A stretch of DNA of 64,000 nucleotides from assembly GCA_013373625.1 (NCBI GenBank), contig JABXHM010000008.1, forward strand, positions 1 through 64,000. The letters run 5' to 3'. Every line of letters starts with the position of its first letter. The stretch's first letter is position 1. Below the pieces are notes generated by a model. It was given only the letters and a program-made list of their open reading frames with translations. It was not told the origin of the DNA and ran no database searches. This DNA is from Alteromonadaceae bacterium. Its GTDB lineage: Bacteria; Pseudomonadota; Gammaproteobacteria; Enterobacterales; Alteromonadaceae. This document shows, in pieces, positions 20,840-29,637 of this stretch. A program made the position numbers and the translations under genes.

Positions 20840-22324
20840 ATGTCACGGACGAAAAATGTATTGCTAAACGTAGTATCTGTTTTGATGCTTTTGCAGACTG
20901 CGGGTGCATCAGCAACGTATGTAAAGGGATTTATCGACGGTGTTGGGACGTCAATTGACAATTTTTATGTAAGCGGTTGGGCCTGTCAGACTGAATATAA
21001 TCAGTCTATTCGAGTGCATCTGTATGCAAATGGGGCGGCAGGTACCGGCAAGTATGTTGCCTCGACTCTTGCATCCAACAGCAGTGAAGCAGGGATCTCA
21101 AATTCCTGCGATACTACCTATAATAAGCATAGATATAAGCTGAATGTCTCAAAAGCCACAGCGTATAAGTATCGTGGACAGTCTGTGTACATGCACGGTA
21201 TTTCAGTGGCGGGAACAGTAAATAACCAGTTAACCCATTCAGGTAGGTATTCGTTTCCCGACTTCCCCACCAGTACTGTAACCGGACATCTTGACGCTAT
21301 CTATCAATCGGGCTCTGATTGGTATGCAAGAGGCTGGGCGTGTCAAAAATATGATACCCAATCAGTCGTGGTTAAACTTTATGCTAATAACTCTACAAGC
21401 TTAATAACTAGTGTAACTACAAACTATGCGTCTATATCGAGCGTATCAACCGCATGTGGAACATCTGGCGCAAAGCACAATTTCAGGGTGAAAATTCCGC
21501 AAAATAAGCTGGCACAGTTTGAAGGGGCGAAAGTATATGCTTATGCATCTTCCACCCTAGGGACTGGGACTAAGATGCTTTATCAGTCAGGTAGTCATAG
21601 CCTGCCCAGCAGTAATAGCCCCCCTACCGTGAGCGTGACATCTCCAGTCAATAATGAGTGGTTCACCTCTGACGAGAGCATCACAGTTAGCGCGTCAGCC
21701 AACGATAGTGACGGCACTGTTTCACGGGTGGAATTTAAACTGGATTCCGGTTCATGGGAATCAGACTCAACTTCGCCTTATTCAAAAAGTTATAGTGCAA
21801 TTCTTGCCGGTGCCCATACTGTTTGTGCAAGGGCGAGAGATAACGACGGTGCGTACAGTGGCCAGTCATGCAGAAATTTCAAAGTAATGGGATTTGCCAC
21901 GCTTAGTTCACCTATAGCGGGTGCCAGCCTTGAAAGTGGTGCTCCTTGCTTCTCCTGGCAACCTGCCGAAGGGGCGACACACTACACAATTCAATTGAGC
22001 AGTGATAGTGCATTTAGGCCAGAGAGTAAACAATGGGTGAATATAGACCTGACTTCAACAAACGTATGCTGGGGATCTGACTTTGTAGCGAATTCAGCAG
22101 CAGGCTCTACACCGTTAAATCTAACTCCTGGCAGTACTTATTTCTGGCGAATAAAGGCAATAGCTGCAAACCATACGGCCACAACGACCACATCGAATGG
22201 CAACTTTACAATAAGTGCACCTTCAGGTGGCTCAGAGAATGAGCGGAAAGTTATATTTATACATACAGATTTACTCGGCTCACCTATTGTCGAAACAGAT
22301 GAACAAGGAAGTGTTTACCAATGA
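20840..22324 (+). CDS. Secreted repeat/Ig-like protein ending in an RHS-core motif
   Basis: A 494-residue exported protein. After a signal peptide (cleavage near residue 25, after ASA) come two tandem repeats of about 120 residues, each with a FYVSGWACQ / WYARGWACQ core followed by VxLYAN and a conserved cysteine. Next is an Ig-like domain (PPTVSVTSPVNNEWF onward, near 258), then a fibronectin-III-like segment (FSWQPAEGATHYTIQLSSD, near 373). The last residues, IHTDLLGSPIVETDEQGSV, are a known RHS-core motif, yet the frame stops two codons later, exactly where the next gene starts (overlap ATGA). A good ribosome site at 20824-20830 supports the start. It is probably an adhesive or delivery partner of the RHS protein; the role is inferred. 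Confidence 0.75.
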   Translation: MSRTKNVLLNVVSVLMLLQTAGASATYVKGFIDGVGTSIDNFYVSGWACQTEYNQSIRVHLYANGAAGTGKYVASTLASNSSEAGISNSCDTTYNKHRYKLNVSKATAYKYRGQSVYMHGISVAGTVNNQLTHSGRYSFPDFPTSTVTGHLDAIYQSGSDWYARGWACQKYDTQSVVVKLYANNSTSLITSVTTNYASISSVSTACGTSGAKHNFRVKIPQNKLAQFEGAKVYAYASSTLGTGTKMLYQSGSHSLPSSNSPPTVSVTSPVNNEWFTSDESITVSASANDSDGTVSRVEFKLDSGSWESDSTSPYSKSYSAILAGAHTVCARARDNDGAYSGQSCRNFKVMGFATLSSPIAGASLESGAPCFSWQPAEGATHYTIQLSSDSAFRPESKQWVNIDLTSTNVCWGSDFVANSAAGSTPLNLTPGSTYFWRIKAIAANHTATTTTSNGNFTISAPSGGSENERKVIFIHTDLLGSPIVETDEQGSVYQ

Positions 22325-25300
22325 GACTGATTTCCAAGCTTACTAATAGTGCGATGTTAAGTGTGATGGCTTTCTATGTTATTGCTCTGGAAAGCAATGG
22401 TCTTCAAATTGAGGGCGTTGTTTCAGAAGCGGTTAACTCTATGAGTACAGCATCTGCGCAAAATGAACCCATATATGTTCAAAAAGAAGATGTTTTTGGC
22501 CGATTGAATAGCTATGAAATCAGTGCTCCTGCAAAGCCATTTGGTATGAAGCATGATTTAAGTTCAGGTGTGGTTTCATTTGAAATTATAGATGTTGCAA
22601 TACCAGGAAATTTTAAAATTCCTGTAGAGATAAGAAGAGTGTTATCAACTGGAGGTTCTGGTGTAAATGCGCTTCCGGATTTTAAAAATTGGTCTTTAGA
22701 CATTCCGAGAATATATTCTACTTCAGTTGGGCGAAGCTATGATGGCGGTCAGACTATTTTACAAGGTAGTGGCTGGAGAATGGGAACGGCTTGTACTGAC
22801 CCTGCTGGTGAGATTGAGTTTGGCGACGGTACAAAAGATTTTACAAAAATGTCAGAAAGAGCTTATTTCAGCGGCGCAACCCTAGTTATTCCTGGAAAAG
22901 TTAATGAAAAAATTCTAAGGACTAACTCCAGTGAAATAGAATACAAAACCGTAGGCAACTATAAAATCAAATGTATTGCCGGTAATGATGATGGTTTCGA
23001 AGTGTTAAGTCCTGATGGCTTAACGTACACATTTGACCAAAGAACCAGAAAAATACGTTCTCTACAGCAATCCAATTCCGTATACACGTATTTAGAACTG
23101 GCTTTAGTAACCCAAATTTCCGACCGTTTTAATAACTCCGTTACATACCATTATGATGACACTGGTGGTCTTTATTCTATTACTTCCACTGATGGACGAG
23201 AGATTACAATAAACCGAAGTGGTGGCTATAGTGAAAGTGTTGTGCCTGACTTCCAGGGTGGAACAATTGACTCTATTGTCGTCAATAATCGCACCTGGGA
23301 CTATGACTATTCCGGCAACAATGATAGTTATCTGAGTACAGTTACTTTGCCTGATCAAACGACATGGGAGTATTCAGAGTCTGTTCGGAGTTATCCCGTG
23401 CGCTCCAGGCAACATGGTGATGGGATTGATGAAGAGCAACTTATTTGTTACCTGGCTCCCAATATAGATGAGACTAGTTTGCAGATCACTAATCCGAGTG
23501 GGGCGCAGGCGACATTGACGCTTTCAGCAACATATCAAGGCCGGGCCGGAGTATTTAGGTCTAACGTTGATCATACGTATACAAACAGTAATTTGAACCC
23601 AGGATTAGTAAAAACCTACATTCTCAACCCTAAGTGTTCTGGTGTTATGGCCTTAACTCAAAAGCATATTTTGCTACGTGATCACTCGAGTTATCAAACT
23701 GACTATATATATTCACAAAACCCAGGGTATTTTAGTATTGAAGATATACCCGAGGTTAATTATTCGGTTGATGTGCCACCAAGCCTTGATACTGCCGAAC
23801 AGAGAGCCCAGCATAAGTATGTAGTTGAAAGCAAACCAGATGGTAGCAAGTCAGTGTACTTCTTTAACCAAGAGCAAGATTCGTTTTATGAAAATAAACT
23901 GGTTGTGCAAGATGATTATGATATCGATGGTACAACGCTATTAAAAAGAACGAGCCATGATTATGTTCAGGGCGTGAGAGTTGGCTCGAGCCATGTATTC
24001 GACAACGTTAAAGGCATAAATTATCGTGTTAACGAATCACTGCTAACAACAAAACTTTTTCATGATGATGGCAACGACGAATATTATACAGAGAACCAAG
24101 AGTGGGATGAGTTTGGCTTTACAACACTGACATTAGAGCACAATGATTTTTCTCAACGAAAAAAATATGTGCGTTACGGGTACAATCATTATATCAATGA
24201 TAATTGGCTCATAGGTATACCAACCACTACAGAAGCATCGGGTGATGGAATTGATTTTGAAAATATATCTGAGCTAACTTATAAAACCGAGTTTCCATTC
24301 CACCTTAATGAGGTAAAAGTGTCTGGGGTTTGGCAACATCGATATGAACAATATCACGATAATGGTTTACCAGAAGAGATTATTTATAACGCGGTATTAA
24401 GAAATAGCTCGGCGAACAATACAGAAAGTTTGCGTTTTAAACGGCTGTTAAATTATAAGCGCGGAATTCCGCAGACTATAGTTCTACCGAATCGTTATTC
24501 TGATAGTGGCACCATTCAATCTAGTCAAACTGTAGATGACAATGGTTGGGTCACCTCGAAAACAAACCTAAATAATATTACGGCTTACTACAAATTTAAT
24601 AATGTTGGAAGGTTAACTGCTATAGATTTGCCAGGCAGTTGGAAAGATCAATACTTAGATTGGAAATCAAATGTTTACAATGACTTGCAAGTAGACGTTA
24701 AGTATTGTGACTTAAATATAGAACGAGATGGATGTAATGCTGGCTCTGTGGTTTTAACCAAAACAGTTAGTTTTGATAGCCTGCTCAGAAAGGTACAAAT
24801 ACAAACTTATGAATTTGAAGCAGAAAGCCGTTATTTGAATTATCAATATAATTTCTCAAATAGTCCACTTTTCATTTCATATCAAAGCGATAACTCGAAT
24901 GAAAGTCAGGGACAAAATATCGCGTACGATGGCCTCGGCCGTCAGGTCAGCTCATCTTTCAGCGGTGGTGGTACAGCCACAACATCCTATAAAAATACCA
25001 ATACGTTATTAACGGTTGATGCCGAAAGTAATCGCCAAATAACACGTTACCTGGCATACGGCCAGCCAAGTTATCAACAGCCATTGCAAATAAGCTCTCC
25101 AAGTGACGTGGGCACCACAACGACGTTTGGGGTAAACATATTTGGTGATGTGGACTGGATCCAACAAACTGATTCGAATGATGTAAGTAACGAAGCGCTC
25201 AGTTTAACAGAATACAGATACTATGATGCTCAGCATCGCGTGTGTAAAGTAACACGCAGTGATATTGGAGCTACATACTATAGCTATAACGCAATTGGTG

Positions 25301-27171
25301 AACTTGGCCAGGTTAAGACTGGTATCCCACACAGCGCTATTGCTGGTTGCAGTTATTCAGGGGCTTTGGAAAGCCAGACGGTACTTACATATGATAATTT
25401 AGGGGCTGAGTGGAAAATCAGTTACGATGGAGGTAGTGGTTTTACAGCCCCTTCTAAAGTATACAGCAGAGACAAATTAGGAAACGTCAAATCTATTGAA
25501 ACAGGGGCGGTGAAGCATGTTTATAATTATAATTCACTTAATTTGTTAGATGATGAAACTCTATACATAAACAATGTTGCGAAAGTACCTGGTGCAGGTG
25601 GGGTTTCCATCGATTACGGCTATGACGAGCTGGGGAATCTCAGTTCAGTTAGTTACCCCGATGGCGACAGCATCTCTTATTCACCCAATAGTTTCGGGGA
25701 GCCCACGGTAGTTAAAAGAGAACGAGATGGTGAAACGGATTATAACTACGCAAGTGAGGTAGAGTACTACGCAAGTGGCCTTTTAAAAACCTTTGAATAT
25801 GGAAACGGTATTGTTCACGAAACAGTTCCTAATATTAGGAATGTACCTCAGATACTAAGTGATAATCTTAGTGGTCATAATATACTGGAACTAACTTATA
25901 GCTATGATAACAACTTAAATATTACTTCTGTCATAGATAGCGTGACTCCCGTATTTAGTTTGACGGAGTTAGAATATGATGGCCTTGATAGGCTTACTGC
26001 CACAGAAGACTATGATGGAAATGTCAGTAGTTCAATTGGTTACGACGCTTTAGGAAATATTACAAGCTATAATACACCTGAACGTTCACTGACTTACAAT
26101 TACGAAGCTTTTACCGGTGACCCTCGGGATAATCTATTAAGAGCAGTAGATCACGTTAATAACAGTACTACTTATAAATCGTTTAGTTATGATATGCGCG
26201 GCAATGTTATTAATGACAGCCTCCATTCATTTGTTTATAACCGAGCTAATCAGTTAGTAGAAGCAACCGGCGCAGCAAGTACAAATTCATATTTGTATGA
26301 TGGGCACAATCGGCGCGTTCAAACTGATGATACTAACGGGACTAGTATCAGCATATATGACTCAAATGGCAAATTGAGATACGTTGAGACAAACGGACAA
26401 GTTGTCAATTATGTGTATCTGGGAGATAGATTAATAGCTAAGGATGGATTTGTAACAGATAGAAAACCAGTTCAACATTTCAGGCCTTACGGAGCTAGCG
26501 TTGAAGGTGAAATAAATGATGTAGGGTTCACTGGTCACAAGTTTGATACTTCATTGGGGCTTAGCTATATGCAGGCACGATACTATGATCCCGTTATCGG
26601 GCGGTTTTATTCGAATGATCCCATCGGATTCCGTGATGTACATAGCTTTAATCGTTATGCGTATGCGAATAACAACCCGTATAAATATGTCGATCCTACT
26701 GGTGAAAGTGCAGTTGGTGCACTTACTACATTCATAGCAGCAGATGCTGCAACTCCTGAGCCAACAGATGCAGCTATTATTCCAAAGGCATTAGGCTATA
26801 CAATATTGCTTGGTGGTGCGATAGCTATTGATGCTGTCTTTAACGAATCCCCTGATGATATTGTGGTTGATGTACTTGATGGAAAAGTGCCAACAGGCAA
26901 ACCGGGAGAATACATAGGAGATCCCGCAGATCTTGAATCGGACCTTGAAGCTTTAACAGGTGGAGATACTAAACAGTATCCAAACGGTACGCGAGTTGGT
27001 CAAATGGAAGATGGTTCTACTGTTGAACAACATGGTTCGTCAGGGAAAGGAAGCGATGGGAATAAGGGCGCAAATGTAAGTAAAGGTACACCGACTATCA
27101 AGGTTAATAGGCCTCCGGGAACTAGAAATATTACGATAAGGTATCCGGAAATTAAGCAAGAGAGCCAATAG
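22321..27171 (+). CDS. Secreted RHS/YD-repeat polymorphic toxin
   Basis: A 1616-residue protein with a hydrophobic N-terminus resembling a signal peptide, a YD-repeat shell (examples YDGLGRQVSSSF, YDELGNLSSVSYPDGD, YDGLDRLTATEDYDGN), and the RHS-associated core GHKFDTSLGLSYMQARYYDP near residue 1403, ending at YVDPTG near 1458. The variable tip of about 155 residues follows: a hydrophobic segment (ALGYTILLGGAIAIDAVF), then a charged tail with YPNGTRVGQMEDGSTVEQHG. The tip is unassigned. AAGGAAG at 22305-22311, inside the previous gene, is its ribosome site, so the two genes are coupled. There is no PAAR or VgrG, so Sec export rather than type VI delivery is suggested. Codon use includes many AGA/AGG arginines, unlike the flanking genes. 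Confidence 0.85.
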   Translation: MRLISKLTNSAMLSVMAFYVIALESNGLQIEGVVSEAVNSMSTASAQNEPIYVQKEDVFGRLNSYEISAPAKPFGMKHDLSSGVVSFEIIDVAIPGNFKIPVEIRRVLSTGGSGVNALPDFKNWSLDIPRIYSTSVGRSYDGGQTILQGSGWRMGTACTDPAGEIEFGDGTKDFTKMSERAYFSGATLVIPGKVNEKILRTNSSEIEYKTVGNYKIKCIAGNDDGFEVLSPDGLTYTFDQRTRKIRSLQQSNSVYTYLELALVTQISDRFNNSVTYHYDDTGGLYSITSTDGREITINRSGGYSESVVPDFQGGTIDSIVVNNRTWDYDYSGNNDSYLSTVTLPDQTTWEYSESVRSYPVRSRQHGDGIDEEQLICYLAPNIDETSLQITNPSGAQATLTLSATYQGRAGVFRSNVDHTYTNSNLNPGLVKTYILNPKCSGVMALTQKHILLRDHSSYQTDYIYSQNPGYFSIEDIPEVNYSVDVPPSLDTAEQRAQHKYVVESKPDGSKSVYFFNQEQDSFYENKLVVQDDYDIDGTTLLKRTSHDYVQGVRVGSSHVFDNVKGINYRVNESLLTTKLFHDDGNDEYYTENQEWDEFGFTTLTLEHNDFSQRKKYVRYGYNHYINDNWLIGIPTTTEASGDGIDFENISELTYKTEFPFHLNEVKVSGVWQHRYEQYHDNGLPEEIIYNAVLRNSSANNTESLRFKRLLNYKRGIPQTIVLPNRYSDSGTIQSSQTVDDNGWVTSKTNLNNITAYYKFNNVGRLTAIDLPGSWKDQYLDWKSNVYNDLQVDVKYCDLNIERDGCNAGSVVLTKTVSFDSLLRKVQIQTYEFEAESRYLNYQYNFSNSPLFISYQSDNSNESQGQNIAYDGLGRQVSSSFSGGGTATTSYKNTNTLLTVDAESNRQITRYLAYGQPSYQQPLQISSPSDVGTTTTFGVNIFGDVDWIQQTDSNDVSNEALSLTEYRYYDAQHRVCKVTRSDIGATYYSYNAIGELGQVKTGIPHSAIAGCSYSGALESQTVLTYDNLGAEWKISYDGGSGFTAPSKVYSRDKLGNVKSIETGAVKHVYNYNSLNLLDDETLYINNVAKVPGAGGVSIDYGYDELGNLSSVSYPDGDSISYSPNSFGEPTVVKRERDGETDYNYASEVEYYASGLLKTFEYGNGIVHETVPNIRNVPQILSDNLSGHNILELTYSYDNNLNITSVIDSVTPVFSLTELEYDGLDRLTATEDYDGNVSSSIGYDALGNITSYNTPERSLTYNYEAFTGDPRDNLLRAVDHVNNSTTYKSFSYDMRGNVINDSLHSFVYNRANQLVEATGAASTNSYLYDGHNRRVQTDDTNGTSISIYDSNGKLRYVETNGQVVNYVYLGDRLIAKDGFVTDRKPVQHFRPYGASVEGEINDVGFTGHKFDTSLGLSYMQARYYDPVIGRFYSNDPIGFRDVHSFNRYAYANNNPYKYVDPTGESAVGALTTFIAADAATPEPTDAAIIPKALGYTILLGGAIAIDAVFNESPDDIVVDVLDGKVPTGKPGEYIGDPADLESDLEALTGGDTKQYPNGTRVGQMEDGSTVEQHGSSGKGSDGNKGANVSKGTPTIKVNRPPGTRNITIRYPEIKQESQ
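26566..26591 (+). repeat. 26-bp exact direct repeat, copy 1 (in RHS core)
   Basis: The same 26 bases occur at 27878-27903. This copy encodes SYMQARYYDP in the core of the full-length RHS gene. Similarity continues at lower identity through the rest of the core (SNDP and FNRYAYANNNPYKYVDP) and then stops at the variable tip. Confidence 0.9.
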
Positions 27172-27696
27172 ATGATAAATGAGAAATTTGTTGAATTGCT
27201 AGACAACTTTGATGGCGAAGAAAAGAATTGTAGACGTGTGTTTATGATTTCTTGGGCTGATACTGATGAGCAAGTCGGAATTGATTATTGCATGCCGTTT
27301 ATGTCAGAAGAAGATGTGTCCGTGGTTATAAGAAGCATAGAACCTTCGGGTAGTTTATATTTTGTTTCTGACGTCGGAACAGAAGAAGAGCCTTATCACC
27401 TAAGTTTTAGTTTACCAAAAACTGTAGAGTCGTTAATAAATTTTCAAAGATGCGGCTTTTTAAAGACGGATTTACTGAGTACTTTTTACATCTTTGATGA
27501 TTCTTTATCTTGGTACATTCTAGTTGATGAAGGTCTAATGATTGCTATGAAAACACACATTTTCGACAAATTTCTCAAGGAATATGGTGGAGCAAATTTG
27601 TTACTGTCTAGGATGAAGCATGAGTTAGAAGACTCAAGTGGGCCTGCTGCTGATTTGAGGGCCAATATTATAAGGGAGTTTGAAGCACTAATTTAA
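27172..27696 (+). CDS. Putative immunity protein for the RHS tip
   Basis: Not recognised by sequence. It is a 174-residue, acidic, cytoplasmic-looking protein (no signal peptide) whose ATG directly abuts the stop of the RHS gene. Position, size and acidity opposite a basic toxin tail are what immunity genes of polymorphic toxins show. The strong terminator 52 bases downstream closes the three-gene unit. The immunity role is inferred from context alone. Confidence 0.65.
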   Translation: MINEKFVELLDNFDGEEKNCRRVFMISWADTDEQVGIDYCMPFMSEEDVSVVIRSIEPSGSLYFVSDVGTEEEPYHLSFSLPKTVESLINFQRCGFLKTDLLSTFYIFDDSLSWYILVDEGLMIAMKTHIFDKFLKEYGGANLLLSRMKHELEDSSGPAADLRANIIREFEALI

Positions 27697-27748: not shown

Positions 27749-27774
27749 AGCCTCGCACTTGCGGGGCTTTTTTT
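27749..27774 (+). terminator. Intrinsic terminator of the RHS-immunity operon
   Basis: AGCCTCGC (27749-27756) pairs with GCGGGGCT (27761-27768), with one G-U pair, around an ACTT loop, followed by a run of seven Ts (27768-27774). It separates the active toxin-immunity unit from the displaced tip downstream. Confidence 0.88.
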
Positions 27775-27874: not shown

Positions 27875-28477
27875 ATGTATATGCAGGCACGATACTATGA
27901 TCCAGTCATAGGTCGTTTCTACTCGAATGATCCTGTTGGGACAATGGGGCACCTGAGCGGTGGCAATATCCAAGGCTTTAATCGATATGCATACGCAAAT
28001 AACAACCCGTATAAGTATGTAGACCCAGATGGAAATAATCCTCGAAGGGCATTATTCAGAGTTTTGAAAGATCCCGTCCATTCGGCGAAACAAGGGTTTA
28101 GGAAAGCACGCAGATTTTTAAGGGATAATGGGGTACTAGCTCCAGCGCCAGTAAGAAATGAAGGTGTGGTAAATGGTGACGTGCCAGTTTCACCTGATAT
28201 TGACCCCGCCGATGTTGCAGGTAAAACACCTGATGAAATTGACGATATTGCTGGAGAACATGGGTTAGAATCTAAAGGTCCTGATCCTAAATCTGGTCAA
28301 GGAGCTTACACTGATCCTGTAACTGGAAAGCAAAGGATTCTAGTTCACCCTAATCCGAAGACTGGCGATTGTGGAGCACACTGTCATGTAAATGATGCGG
28401 ATGGAAATAGGCTTGATATTGACGGCAATGTAGTTGAACCTGAATCACCAGATAGTAACAGGACAGGCACTATGTGA
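27875..28477 (+). pseudogene. Orphan RHS core fragment with an alternative toxin tip
   Basis: The open frame begins inside the conserved RHS core (MQARYYDPVIGRFYSNDP), with no YD-repeat shell and no ribosome site before it, and shares a 26-bp exact repeat with the full-length gene. After YVDPDG the sequence is quite different from the first tip: a basic stretch (PRRALFRVLKDPVHSAKQGF), then KTPDEIDDIAGEHGLESKGP, KSGQGAYTDPVTGKQRILVH and CGAHCHVND, a pattern that recurs in RHS tips but is not assigned here to an enzyme family. It looks like a displaced tip kept as a silent cassette. No immunity gene is evident in the 215 bases that follow. Confidence 0.75.
27878..27903 (+). repeat. 26-bp exact direct repeat, copy 2 (orphan tip)
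   Basis: Identical to 26566-26591. It marks the left boundary of similarity between the orphan cassette and the full-length RHS gene; the bases just before it are unrelated. It could serve as a homology arm for tip exchange. Confidence 0.9.
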
Positions 28478-28692: not shown

Positions 28693-29637
28693 TTACCCGT
28701 AGCCTTCTTGTTTTTTGCGTTGATTTAGTTGCTTTTCAATACTCACTGATGATTTAAAAGTTGTCTCAATACCAGATACCATGTTTTTCCAGTCACAGTA
28801 CTCCAATCCAATCCGACTCAGAATGCGGGAATTAGAATCATTGATTTTTCCTTTCTTGTTGGGATGTAAGCAGCGCCCCGAAAGTTCAACCAGCTCAATA
28901 TAATCCTGTAGCCGAAAAGGTAAGCCGTCGGGCATGTTGTTAGTTGGATTACCTGCAAAGGGGAGTAACGGAGCCGGTTGTCGATTTAATTTAGCCTCGT
29001 TGATACGTTTTTTAATACTTGTGTGCATTGATACTTCTGGGGTATCGGCCAAACAGGCGCGTACCGGGTTTAAGTCGACATATGCCATGCAGGCGGCTAA
29101 TGCAGCTTCATCTAAAAGCGCCTGTGACTTAAATCGGCCCTCCCAGAAATGACCTGTACAGTTATCTTCTTTGTTAGCACGACGAGCAATGGACTCATTC
29201 AGCAAGCGCATAAACCAACTTATATCGTACAGCCGCTTACGGTAAACTTCAGCGAGGCTTATTACGGTTGCAGTCTCTGCTTCAGACAACGTGTTACAAT
29301 CAGCGGGGGCAATATAACGTTGTGGCAATAGCATGCCTTTGTAGAGTCGGTGCCACCGCCTGATTACGTCTTTCACACCTAACGAATCAGCCTTTTGCTT
29401 GTTGATACGCAATACTACGTGTGTATGATTGCTCATTACCGCATAAGCGCACACATCAACACAAAATACCTCTGCCAAAAATAGTAATCTGTCTTCCACC
29501 CATTGTCTGCGATGCTCATAGCTTTTGCCTGTCAGCTTATCTTCTCCACATAAGAATGCCCGTCGAACACAGCGGGAAATGCAATGGTAGTAAGGCGTGT
29601 CTGAAAGGTTGATGAGGCTTTTACGGGGTCTGGGCAC
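28693..29637 (-). CDS. REP-associated tyrosine transposase (RAYT/Y1 type), copy 1
   Basis: A 314-residue single-strand HUH nuclease of the Y1 transposase superfamily. The metal-binding HxH is H71-T-H73 in VMSNHTHVVL. The likely nucleophile is Y186 in AYVDLNPVRA, the position matching the catalytic tyrosine of E. coli RayT. FWEGRFKSQALLDE is also typical. It is intact. It lies between the orphan RHS tip and a truncated gene, in the opposite orientation to both, so it may have contributed to the rearrangement. No TGGGTGTC repeats like those around copy 2 were found next to it. Confidence 0.85.
   Translation of the reverse strand: MPRPRKSLINLSDTPYYHCISRCVRRAFLCGEDKLTGKSYEHRRQWVEDRLLFLAEVFCVDVCAYAVMSNHTHVVLRINKQKADSLGVKDVIRRWHRLYKGMLLPQRYIAPADCNTLSEAETATVISLAEVYRKRLYDISWFMRLLNESIARRANKEDNCTGHFWEGRFKSQALLDEAALAACMAYVDLNPVRACLADTPEVSMHTSIKKRINEAKLNRQPAPLLPFAGNPTNNMPDGLPFRLQDYIELVELSGRCLHPNKKGKINDSNSRILSRIGLEYCDWKNMVSGIETTFKSSVSIEKQLNQRKKQEGYG

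What the first reader, a model, noticed from the sequence alone, without database searches (positions are those of the whole stretch)
20840..27696. Three-gene RHS toxin unit with a coupled secreted partner
Two genes overlap by ATGA, and the second has its own ribosome site (22305-22311) inside the first. The first encodes a Sec-exported repeat/Ig-like protein, the second a Sec-exported RHS toxin, and the third an abutting putative immunity protein; a strong terminator closes the unit. There is no PAAR, VgrG or type VI gene. This suggests an envelope-exported RHS system in which the first protein is an adhesin or carrier. The composition differs from the flanking genes.
Basis: partly seen in the sequence, partly recalled or inferred. 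Interest (0 to 1): 0.75.

Follow-up and report, generated by a model that had tools for sequence, protein, structure and literature searches.

The report
Split toxin shell shared between genes
In this bacterium and dozens of relatives, a protein of the RHS toxin-shell family lacks one short strand, and that same strand ends the protein encoded next door, so the neighbour, likely an adhesive carrier, is predicted to plug its tail into the shell and complete it outside the cytoplasm.

Summary
The three genes, ATGA overlap, ribosome site and terminator are as described, but the central feature was missed. Gene 1 (20840-22324) ends in ...VIFIHTDLLGSPIVETDEQGSVYQ, the first half of the Pfam RHS strand (PF03527). 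Gene 2 (22321-27171), an RHS protein, lacks that strand. This is a conserved split. A profile trained only on the in-chain hairpin of 23 unsplit RHS proteins finds it at the C-terminus of an upstream gene for 59 of 67 RHS proteins that lack it, and for 0 of 23 that keep it. Two cut points are complementary: 48 of 48 class A tails stop after the first strand; 11 of 11 class B tails carry the whole hairpin, which class B RHS proteins lack. Carrier bodies vary (Ig, FN3, FG-GAP, PKD); H and D of the tail are invariant in 59 of 59. AlphaFold gives the piece as two strands in an unsplit relative; in gene 2 everything after the gap falls below pLDDT 50. Best reading: two exported proteins assemble by strand donation, docking a carrier on an RHS toxin cage. 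Physical donation, toxicity and immunity are untested. Eight RHS lacked an automatically found tail, and a few carriers stand alone.

The parts
20840..22324 (+). Gene 1: likely exported carrier; two copies of a 'GWACQ' domain, Big_7 Ig domain, second Ig-like domain (weak), RHS-strand tail
   Evidence: hydrophobic N-terminus, signal peptide judged by eye
22250..22321 (+). C-terminal tail VIFIHTDLLGSPIVETDEQGSVYQ: the RHS strand that gene 2 lacks
   Evidence: PF03527 residues 473-492; hairpin profile score 26.9, 2 residues from the ORF end
22305..22311 (+). Ribosome-binding-site-like AAGGAAG for gene 2, inside gene 1
   Evidence: sequence
22321..22324 (+). ATGA start/stop overlap of genes 1 and 2
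   Evidence: sequence
22321..27171 (+). Gene 2: RHS/YD-repeat cage protein with core and variable tip, lacking the HTDxLGSP strand
   Evidence: AlphaFold and Foldseek
26428..26493 (+). Split site in gene 2: RLIAKDG strand, short linker FVTDRK, then PVQHFRPYG, where unsplit RHS proteins carry the HTD strand between
   Evidence: alignment A2; models; numbering checked
26524..26700 (+). RHS-associated core (GFTGH...RYYDPVIGRF...DPIG)
   Evidence: TIGR03696
26701..27168 (+). Variable C-terminal tip, putative toxin
   Evidence: position after the core; three of the fetched loci encode a relative of the tip at E<=0.01
27172..27696 (+). Putative immunity gene
   Evidence: position; weak similarity in L204 after a related tip; only one near-identical protein cluster found in the database
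27749..27774 (+). Intrinsic terminator-like hairpin and T-run
27875..28477 (+). Orphan RHS tip: core piece plus a different tip, no cage
   Evidence: TIGR03696 match; 72% nucleotide identity over 149 bp to the gene 2 core

Best explanation
Genes 1 and 2 encode what is likely a split RHS polymorphic toxin: the RHS cage protein lacks one strand, that strand forms the C-terminus of the upstream Ig-domain protein, and the tail is predicted to insert into the cage by strand donation, docking the carrier on it. Shown: the strand is absent from one protein and present at the end of the other, across many relatives and at two different cut points. Inferred: both proteins are exported by Sec, meet outside the cytoplasm, and the tail fills the gap next to the RHS core; the shell closes around the tip, and the Ig/FN3 carrier becomes its adhesive or anchoring head. 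Also inferred: the tip is an antibacterial toxin, gene 3 is its immunity gene, and the type II system carries the complex out. Splitting the shell would keep it inactive in the cytoplasm and let carriers be exchanged without touching the toxin gene.
For: (1) A 31-position hairpin profile trained only on 23 unsplit RHS proteins finds the piece 0-6 residues from the end of an upstream same-strand ORF for 59 of 67 RHS proteins lacking it and 0 of 23 keeping it. (2) Complementary cut points: 48 of 48 class A tails end at profile position 15-22, 11 of 11 class B tails reach 31; among the 17 class A RHS with a readable remainder the two pieces overlap in one, L152. (3) Of 10,137 ORFs in the loci, 111 profile hits at E up to 1: 34 in the RHS ORFs, 59 the tails, 18 others, mainly short core proteins and extra tails. 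(4) Tail H and D are invariant in 59 of 59; pN/pS 0.24 with pS near saturation; only 333 of 1711 body pairs are detectably similar. (5) PF03527 is the Pfam family met by most of the 59 carriers (21, at E up to 1). (6) On the RHS tree split and unsplit forms interchange several times; in 5 independent contrasts the tail follows in 4.4 on average and never opposes. (7) AlphaFold: in unsplit L098 the piece is two strands between turns, block pLDDT 89 and 92; in gene 2 the next strand is unformed and pLDDT is under 50 from there on. (8) The genome has a type II secretin and no VgrG match.
Against: No direct evidence of binding; a two-chain model could not be run, and no coordinates were available, only secondary structure and confidence. 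Eight of 67 split RHS proteins lack an automatically found same-strand tail (L084, L086, L097, L102, L148, L160, L162, L201); two of these have a divergent tail gene beside them, one a tail in a broken ORF, one a partial tail, one begins at a contig end; L086, L102 and L162 stay unexplained. Some carriers stand without an RHS gene in reach (G400, G388, G379). Single linkage joins 50 of the 59 carrier bodies, so they are not wholly unrelated. The phylogenetic sign test has too few contrasts for significance (median p 0.125). The gene 2 model used a smaller alignment than the L098 model (35 against 60 rows), and the core itself is low in both. Gene 2's own N-terminus is not a typical signal peptide.
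Confidence: 0.74

Rival explanations
1. The tail is a relic: an RHS gene once carried the Ig domains and was cut by recombination or insertion of gene 2, leaving a non-functional stub of the hairpin.
For: RHS loci recombine, as the orphan tip at 27875 and broken copies in L129, L189 and L243 suggest. Proteins exist that join Ig domains directly to a hairpin, core and tip, such as P0085 and P0091.
Against: Stubs would end at scattered places; these end at two places matched to what the partner lacks (48 of 48, 11 of 11). Purifying selection on the tail and invariance of H and D over deep divergence. Tail and gap change together on the tree, in few contrasts.
Confidence: 0.12
2. The two genes make one fused polypeptide by programmed frameshifting or stop read-through at the overlap.
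For: Frequent overlaps by 1 or 4 bases (23 of 59).
Against: 56 of 59 partner RHS frames hold their own hydrophobic stretch within the first 110 codons (crude); other pairs are separated by up to 738 bases and two are divergent. A fusion would put the strand over 1000 residues from its place, before the RHS protein's own N-terminus.
Confidence: 0.03
3. An ordinary exported RHS toxin with an independent adhesin gene upstream; the shared motif is a DNA or RNA element for translational coupling or recombination.
For: Start-stop coupling is common, and RHS cores recombine (recalled).
Against: Codons are near saturation at synonymous sites while residues are kept, so protein is selected, not DNA. 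The matching absence from the partner is unexplained.
Confidence: 0.08

Closest known systems
Single-chain RHS cages of type VI effectors (RhsA, RhsP, Tse5, Tse15)
   Same: Same fold by Foldseek (7q97, 8h8b, 8cp6, 8uxt) and same core; RhsP has an in-chain segment where this family has the gap (printed alignment).
   Different: PAAR/VgrG delivery and one chain (recalled, and PMC8765631 passages); here no VgrG match in the genome and one strand encoded in another gene.
TcB-TcC shell of ABC/Tc toxins (4o9x, 6h6e)
   Same: Precedent for an RHS shell built from two polypeptides (PMC11067744, passages including the abstract; TM-scores 0.62-0.69 by query length for its crystal and prepore entries).
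   Different: Both Tc chains contribute large parts of the wall (recalled); here a tail of about 15-40 residues on a variable carrier is the contribution.
Bacterial teneurin-like proteins (TLPs, 9ifo)
   Same: RHS-type shell, adhesion domains, Sec signals in part, polymorphic C-terminus with immunity (PMC13018210, outline with abstract and passages).
   Different: Adhesion domains and shell in one chain; no split strand in the passages read.
Donor-strand complementation in chaperone-usher pili
   Same: Works alike: a strand from one exported protein fills a gap in another (recalled; search listing only).
   Different: Unrelated folds (recalled); carriers here are Ig/FN3 heads and the acceptor is an RHS cage.
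RHS C-terminal displacement (orphan tips)
   Same: An orphan tip lies at 27875-28477.
   Different: Displacement swaps toxin tips (recalled); here the exchangeable part would be the carrier.

Membership tests
RHS/YD-repeat polymorphic toxins | RHS repeats forming a beta cage | tested here: met
   PF05593; AlphaFold pLDDT 82, pTM 0.79; the first 48 Foldseek hits listed are RHS, Tc, teneurin and SGS1 shells
RHS/YD-repeat polymorphic toxins | RHS-associated core followed by a variable tip | tested here: met
   TIGR03696 residues 1388-1461; tip relatives in only 3 of the fetched loci at E<=0.01
RHS/YD-repeat polymorphic toxins | PF03527 strand within the RHS chain | tested here: not met
   Absent from gene 2, present at the end of gene 1; so gene 2 is filed as a variant, not a canonical member
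RHS/YD-repeat polymorphic toxins | Cognate immunity gene next to the tip | tested here: inconclusive
   27172-27696 abuts gene 2; similarity after a related tip only 36% over 39 aa, E 1.3e-4
RHS/YD-repeat polymorphic toxins | Toxic activity of the tip | not testable with these tools
   needs expression
Type VI Rhs effectors | VgrG/PAAR delivery | tested here: not met
   No match to VgrG family TIGR03361 in the whole genome; no PAAR by Pfam in the seven proteins scanned
Tc toxin TcB-TcC | SpvB domain and TcB propeller in the partner chain | tested here: not met
   Neither gene 1 nor gene 2 matches; 5 of 59 carriers match TcdB_toxin_midN, best E 8.8e-5
Bacterial teneurin-like proteins | Adhesion domains, shell and tip in one chain | tested here: not met
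   Ig domains lie on a separate polypeptide
Bacterial teneurin-like proteins | Teneurin-type domains before the shell | not tested
   no TLP profile was built
Donor-strand complementation (works-like) | A strand from one chain completes a sheet in another | not testable with these tools
   sequence complementarity and the gap in the model only

The most novel reading that the evidence does not exclude
RHS cages can be assembled in trans: exported proteins of varied build share a strand-donating tail that works as a common plug, so that one cage can take alternative carriers (tandem and stand-alone carriers exist) and is locked until a carrier supplies the missing strand. This would be a modular split-toxin principle with carrier exchange on one side and tip exchange on the other.
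Probability: 0.4. Interest if true: 0.92.

Novelty: new variant of a known kind. Interest (0 to 1): 0.8.

Why it matters
How exported RHS toxins of Gram-negative bacteria without type VI parts are assembled, kept safe inside the producer and attached to something that reaches a target is, to my knowledge, open. Here the sequence names the docking interface to the residue, gives natural unsplit controls nested among split relatives, and offers two alternative split points. If the tail docks, it explains a set of 'Ig-like domain-containing' proteins as toxin carriers, supplies a tag for finding them, and gives a natural split beta cage for studying protein assembly.

Tried and rejected
A genome-contig scan with gene 1 as query confirmed no relative. 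Gene 1's full-length protein search returned mainly Ig proteins; the useful fact was that P0002, P0004, P0025 and P0120 end, as listed, shortly after the same motif. The immunity protein has only one near-identical cluster in the protein database, so its co-variation with tips could not be tested. Considered and rejected: frameshift fusion, relic, DNA element (see rivals). Papers: searches (open PMC library only) listed no split RHS cage with a donated strand among the titles and abstract starts shown; I saw the outline and passages of PMC13018210 and passages of PMC8765631, PMC3482391, PMC7170923 and PMC11067744, no whole text.

Rows dropped: of the 60 regions fetched, eight had no RHS ORF over 1000 aa with a core by my filter (L099, L110, L112, L114, L117, L121, L122, L123); several of them are the short-core form. 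Of the 80 named loci, 37 gave new distinct RHS ORFs; the others repeat the first set or had no such ORF. Near-copies remain among the 90 (for instance L065/L066, L155/L157, L185/L186).

Caveats on counts: loci were chosen by similarity to gene 2, so 59 of 67 is not a census. Class labels A and B are largely clades, so the perfect 48/11 split (p 3.6e-12) and the Fisher p 5e-15 are not corrected for relatedness. The A label of L201 rests on a chance pattern match and is doubtful; it is not among the 59. Of the 90 RHS ORFs, 11 had under 2 kb upstream; without them it is 53 of 60 split against 0 of 19 unsplit. Overlap counts take the first ATG, which need not be the true start. The signal-peptide scan is crude: 52 of 59 carriers and 56 of 59 partner RHS frames hold an uncharged hydrophobic stretch near the start of the open frame.
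Full report
What is in the window. Gene 2 is an RHS protein by NCBIfam and Pfam. Gene 1 has Ig-like domains, and its last residues weakly match Pfam RHS (PF03527, positions 3-22 of 38, E 0.052). Gene 2 lacks that stretch: between ...YLGDRLIAKDG and ...QHFRPYGASVEG, where unsplit relatives run through YxHTDxLGSPxAxTxxxG, it has a short linker (alignment A2).

The lead. The protein search with gene 1 returned proteins that end, as listed, within about 20 residues after the same motif (P0002, P0004, P0025, P0120); two of these are named by their source as from Thalassomonas haliotis and Neptunicella marina. A search with gene 2 over 246 genomes of the family gave RHS matches in 138. I fetched 60 regions and, with an alignment of the C-terminal region, 80 loci of named genomes, the best 80 of 428.

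The test. From these and the window I took 90 distinct RHS ORFs over 1000 aa with a recognisable core: the window, 52 of the 60 regions, and 37 of the 80 named loci. A profile was trained on the in-chain hairpin of the 23 unsplit proteins only. It was then run on all RHS ORFs and all same-strand ORFs ending within 3 kb upstream (536 targets). Of 67 RHS proteins without the full hairpin, 59 have an upstream ORF whose last residues match it, 0-6 residues from the end (i-E 0.0042 or better). Of the 23 with the hairpin, none has one. Class A (54 RHS, one of them, L201, doubtfully labelled) keeps the second strand (PFGE) and lacks the first; class B (13) lacks both. The tails mirror this: 48 of 48 in class A stop at profile position 15-22, 11 of 11 in class B reach the end. 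Carrier open frames are 134 to 1877 codons long. Taking the first ATG, 12 pairs overlap by 1 base and 11 by 4; others lie up to 738 bases apart.

Exceptions. Of the eight split RHS without an automatic tail, L084 and L160 have a divergent tail gene beside the RHS start; L148 has the tail in an ORF broken by a stop; L097 has only the PFGE half; L201 starts at a contig end; L086, L102 and L162 are unexplained. In L129 and L189, outside the 90, RHS frames broken into pieces follow intact tails.

From the tail side. A degenerate pattern for [FY]xH[TS]DxLG over 246 genomes gave 63 matches in 41 genomes. By hand, 44 are C-terminal tails: 34 upstream of an RHS gene on the same strand (two of these RHS genes broken, one with a 263-codon ORF between), 1 divergent, 2 upstream of a second tail gene and then an RHS gene, 3 in one unresolved cluster in G384, 1 at a contig end, and 3 with no RHS gene in reach (G400:C9, G388:C27, G379:C1052). 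Of the other 19 matches, two (G420:C2, G325) were not examined and one (G342:C41) was placed by its position only. So stand-alone carriers exist but are few.

Selection. Over the 59 tails H and D are invariant, and pN/pS over 14 codons is 0.24 at near-saturated pS. The bodies are far more diverse: 333 of 1711 pairs are detectably alike by BLASTP at E<=1e-3, although single linkage still joins 50 of 59 in one of 7 clusters, so many share Ig/FN3-type domains. Pfam RHS is the family met by most of the 59 carriers (21 at E up to 1, best 0.0012), ahead of Y_Y_Y, Big_9, Big_7, fn3, FG-GAP and PKD. By a crude hydrophobicity scan 52 of 59 carriers and 56 of 59 partner RHS frames hold a signal-peptide-like stretch near their start; three of the seven carrier misses are cut or begin near a contig end. 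No dedicated predictor was available.

History. On a tree of the RHS proteins without the hairpin columns the three forms need 7 changes. Unsplit proteins are nested within class A (L093, L098, L167, L168 beside L089 and L090) and within class B (L174, L187). In five independent contrasts on supported branches the tail follows the gap in 4.4 on average and never goes the other way; with so few contrasts the sign test stays at a median p of 0.125. A further form, outside the 90, puts hairpin, core and tip on a short protein downstream of a long RHS-type protein without a core (L110, L112, L114, L117, L210, L211). The same region of the shell is thus cut at several places.

Structure. AlphaFold on 1090 residues of unsplit L098 gives pLDDT 88.9 and pTM 0.83; the piece is TVTYLHT (1000-1006) and PVAQT (1012-1016), then SASGS (1017-1021) and a strand from 1022, with block pLDDT 89, 92 and 88. 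The class A piece lies between turns. For gene 2 the model (pLDDT 82, pTM 0.79) is confident through RLIAKDG (1011-1017), then falls under 50 from 1021, and PVQHFRPYG (1024-1032) forms no strand. Only secondary structure and confidence were given, no coordinates. Foldseek finds RHS, Tc and teneurin shells for both. In the printed alignment to solved RhsP the segment around the missing strand is an insertion relative to this family. The gene 2 alignment is smaller and the core is weak in both models, so this is supporting, not decisive.

How it likely works. Shown: complementary distribution of one strand between two genes. Inferred: both products cross the inner membrane by Sec, the tail fills the gap beside the core, the carrier becomes the head of the toxin shell, and the type II system (secretin present, 535.6 bits) exports the complex; there is no VgrG match. 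The tip as toxin and gene 3 as immunity rest on position and on one weak similarity.

Known or new. RHS cages, two-chain Tc shells and single-chain exported teneurin-like toxins are known. Eight literature searches in the open PMC library listed no RHS toxin completed by a strand from a carrier protein. I call it a new variant of a known kind.

Noticed in passing
window 27875-28477: Orphan RHS tip: core piece with another C-terminal tip and no cage; 72% nucleotide identity over 149 bp to the gene 2 core.
   Followed up: partly
window 28693-29637 (-): REP-associated tyrosine transposase-like gene (NF047646, below cut-off) beside the RHS cluster; an ORF with a similar start (DTPYYHC) lies between the RHS gene and a stand-alone carrier in L125.
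   Followed up: no
L210 and L211; L112, L114, L117, L110: Short proteins made of a signal-peptide-like start, HTD hairpin, core and tip downstream of long RHS-type proteins without a core: another split of the same shell; L210 has two such cassettes with different ends.
   Followed up: partly
L252 (G384), 2446, 7027 and 9597: Three carrier genes ending in the HTD tail in one cluster; the first is followed by two small ORFs, the second by the third carrier, the third by several YD-repeat ORFs.
   Followed up: partly
L251, L191, L090: Two tail-ending carrier genes upstream of one RHS gene (in L090 and L191 with other genes between), hinting at alternative carriers for one cage.
   Followed up: no
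L245 (G388:C27) and L097 (G388:C11): A stand-alone class B carrier with intact tail in the same genome as a class B RHS gene whose own upstream tail is degenerate: possible supply in trans.
   Followed up: no
window 20840-22324, residues about 30-250: A repeated domain with the motif GWACQ, without a Pfam match; P0017 joins two copies to a YD repeat.
   Followed up: no
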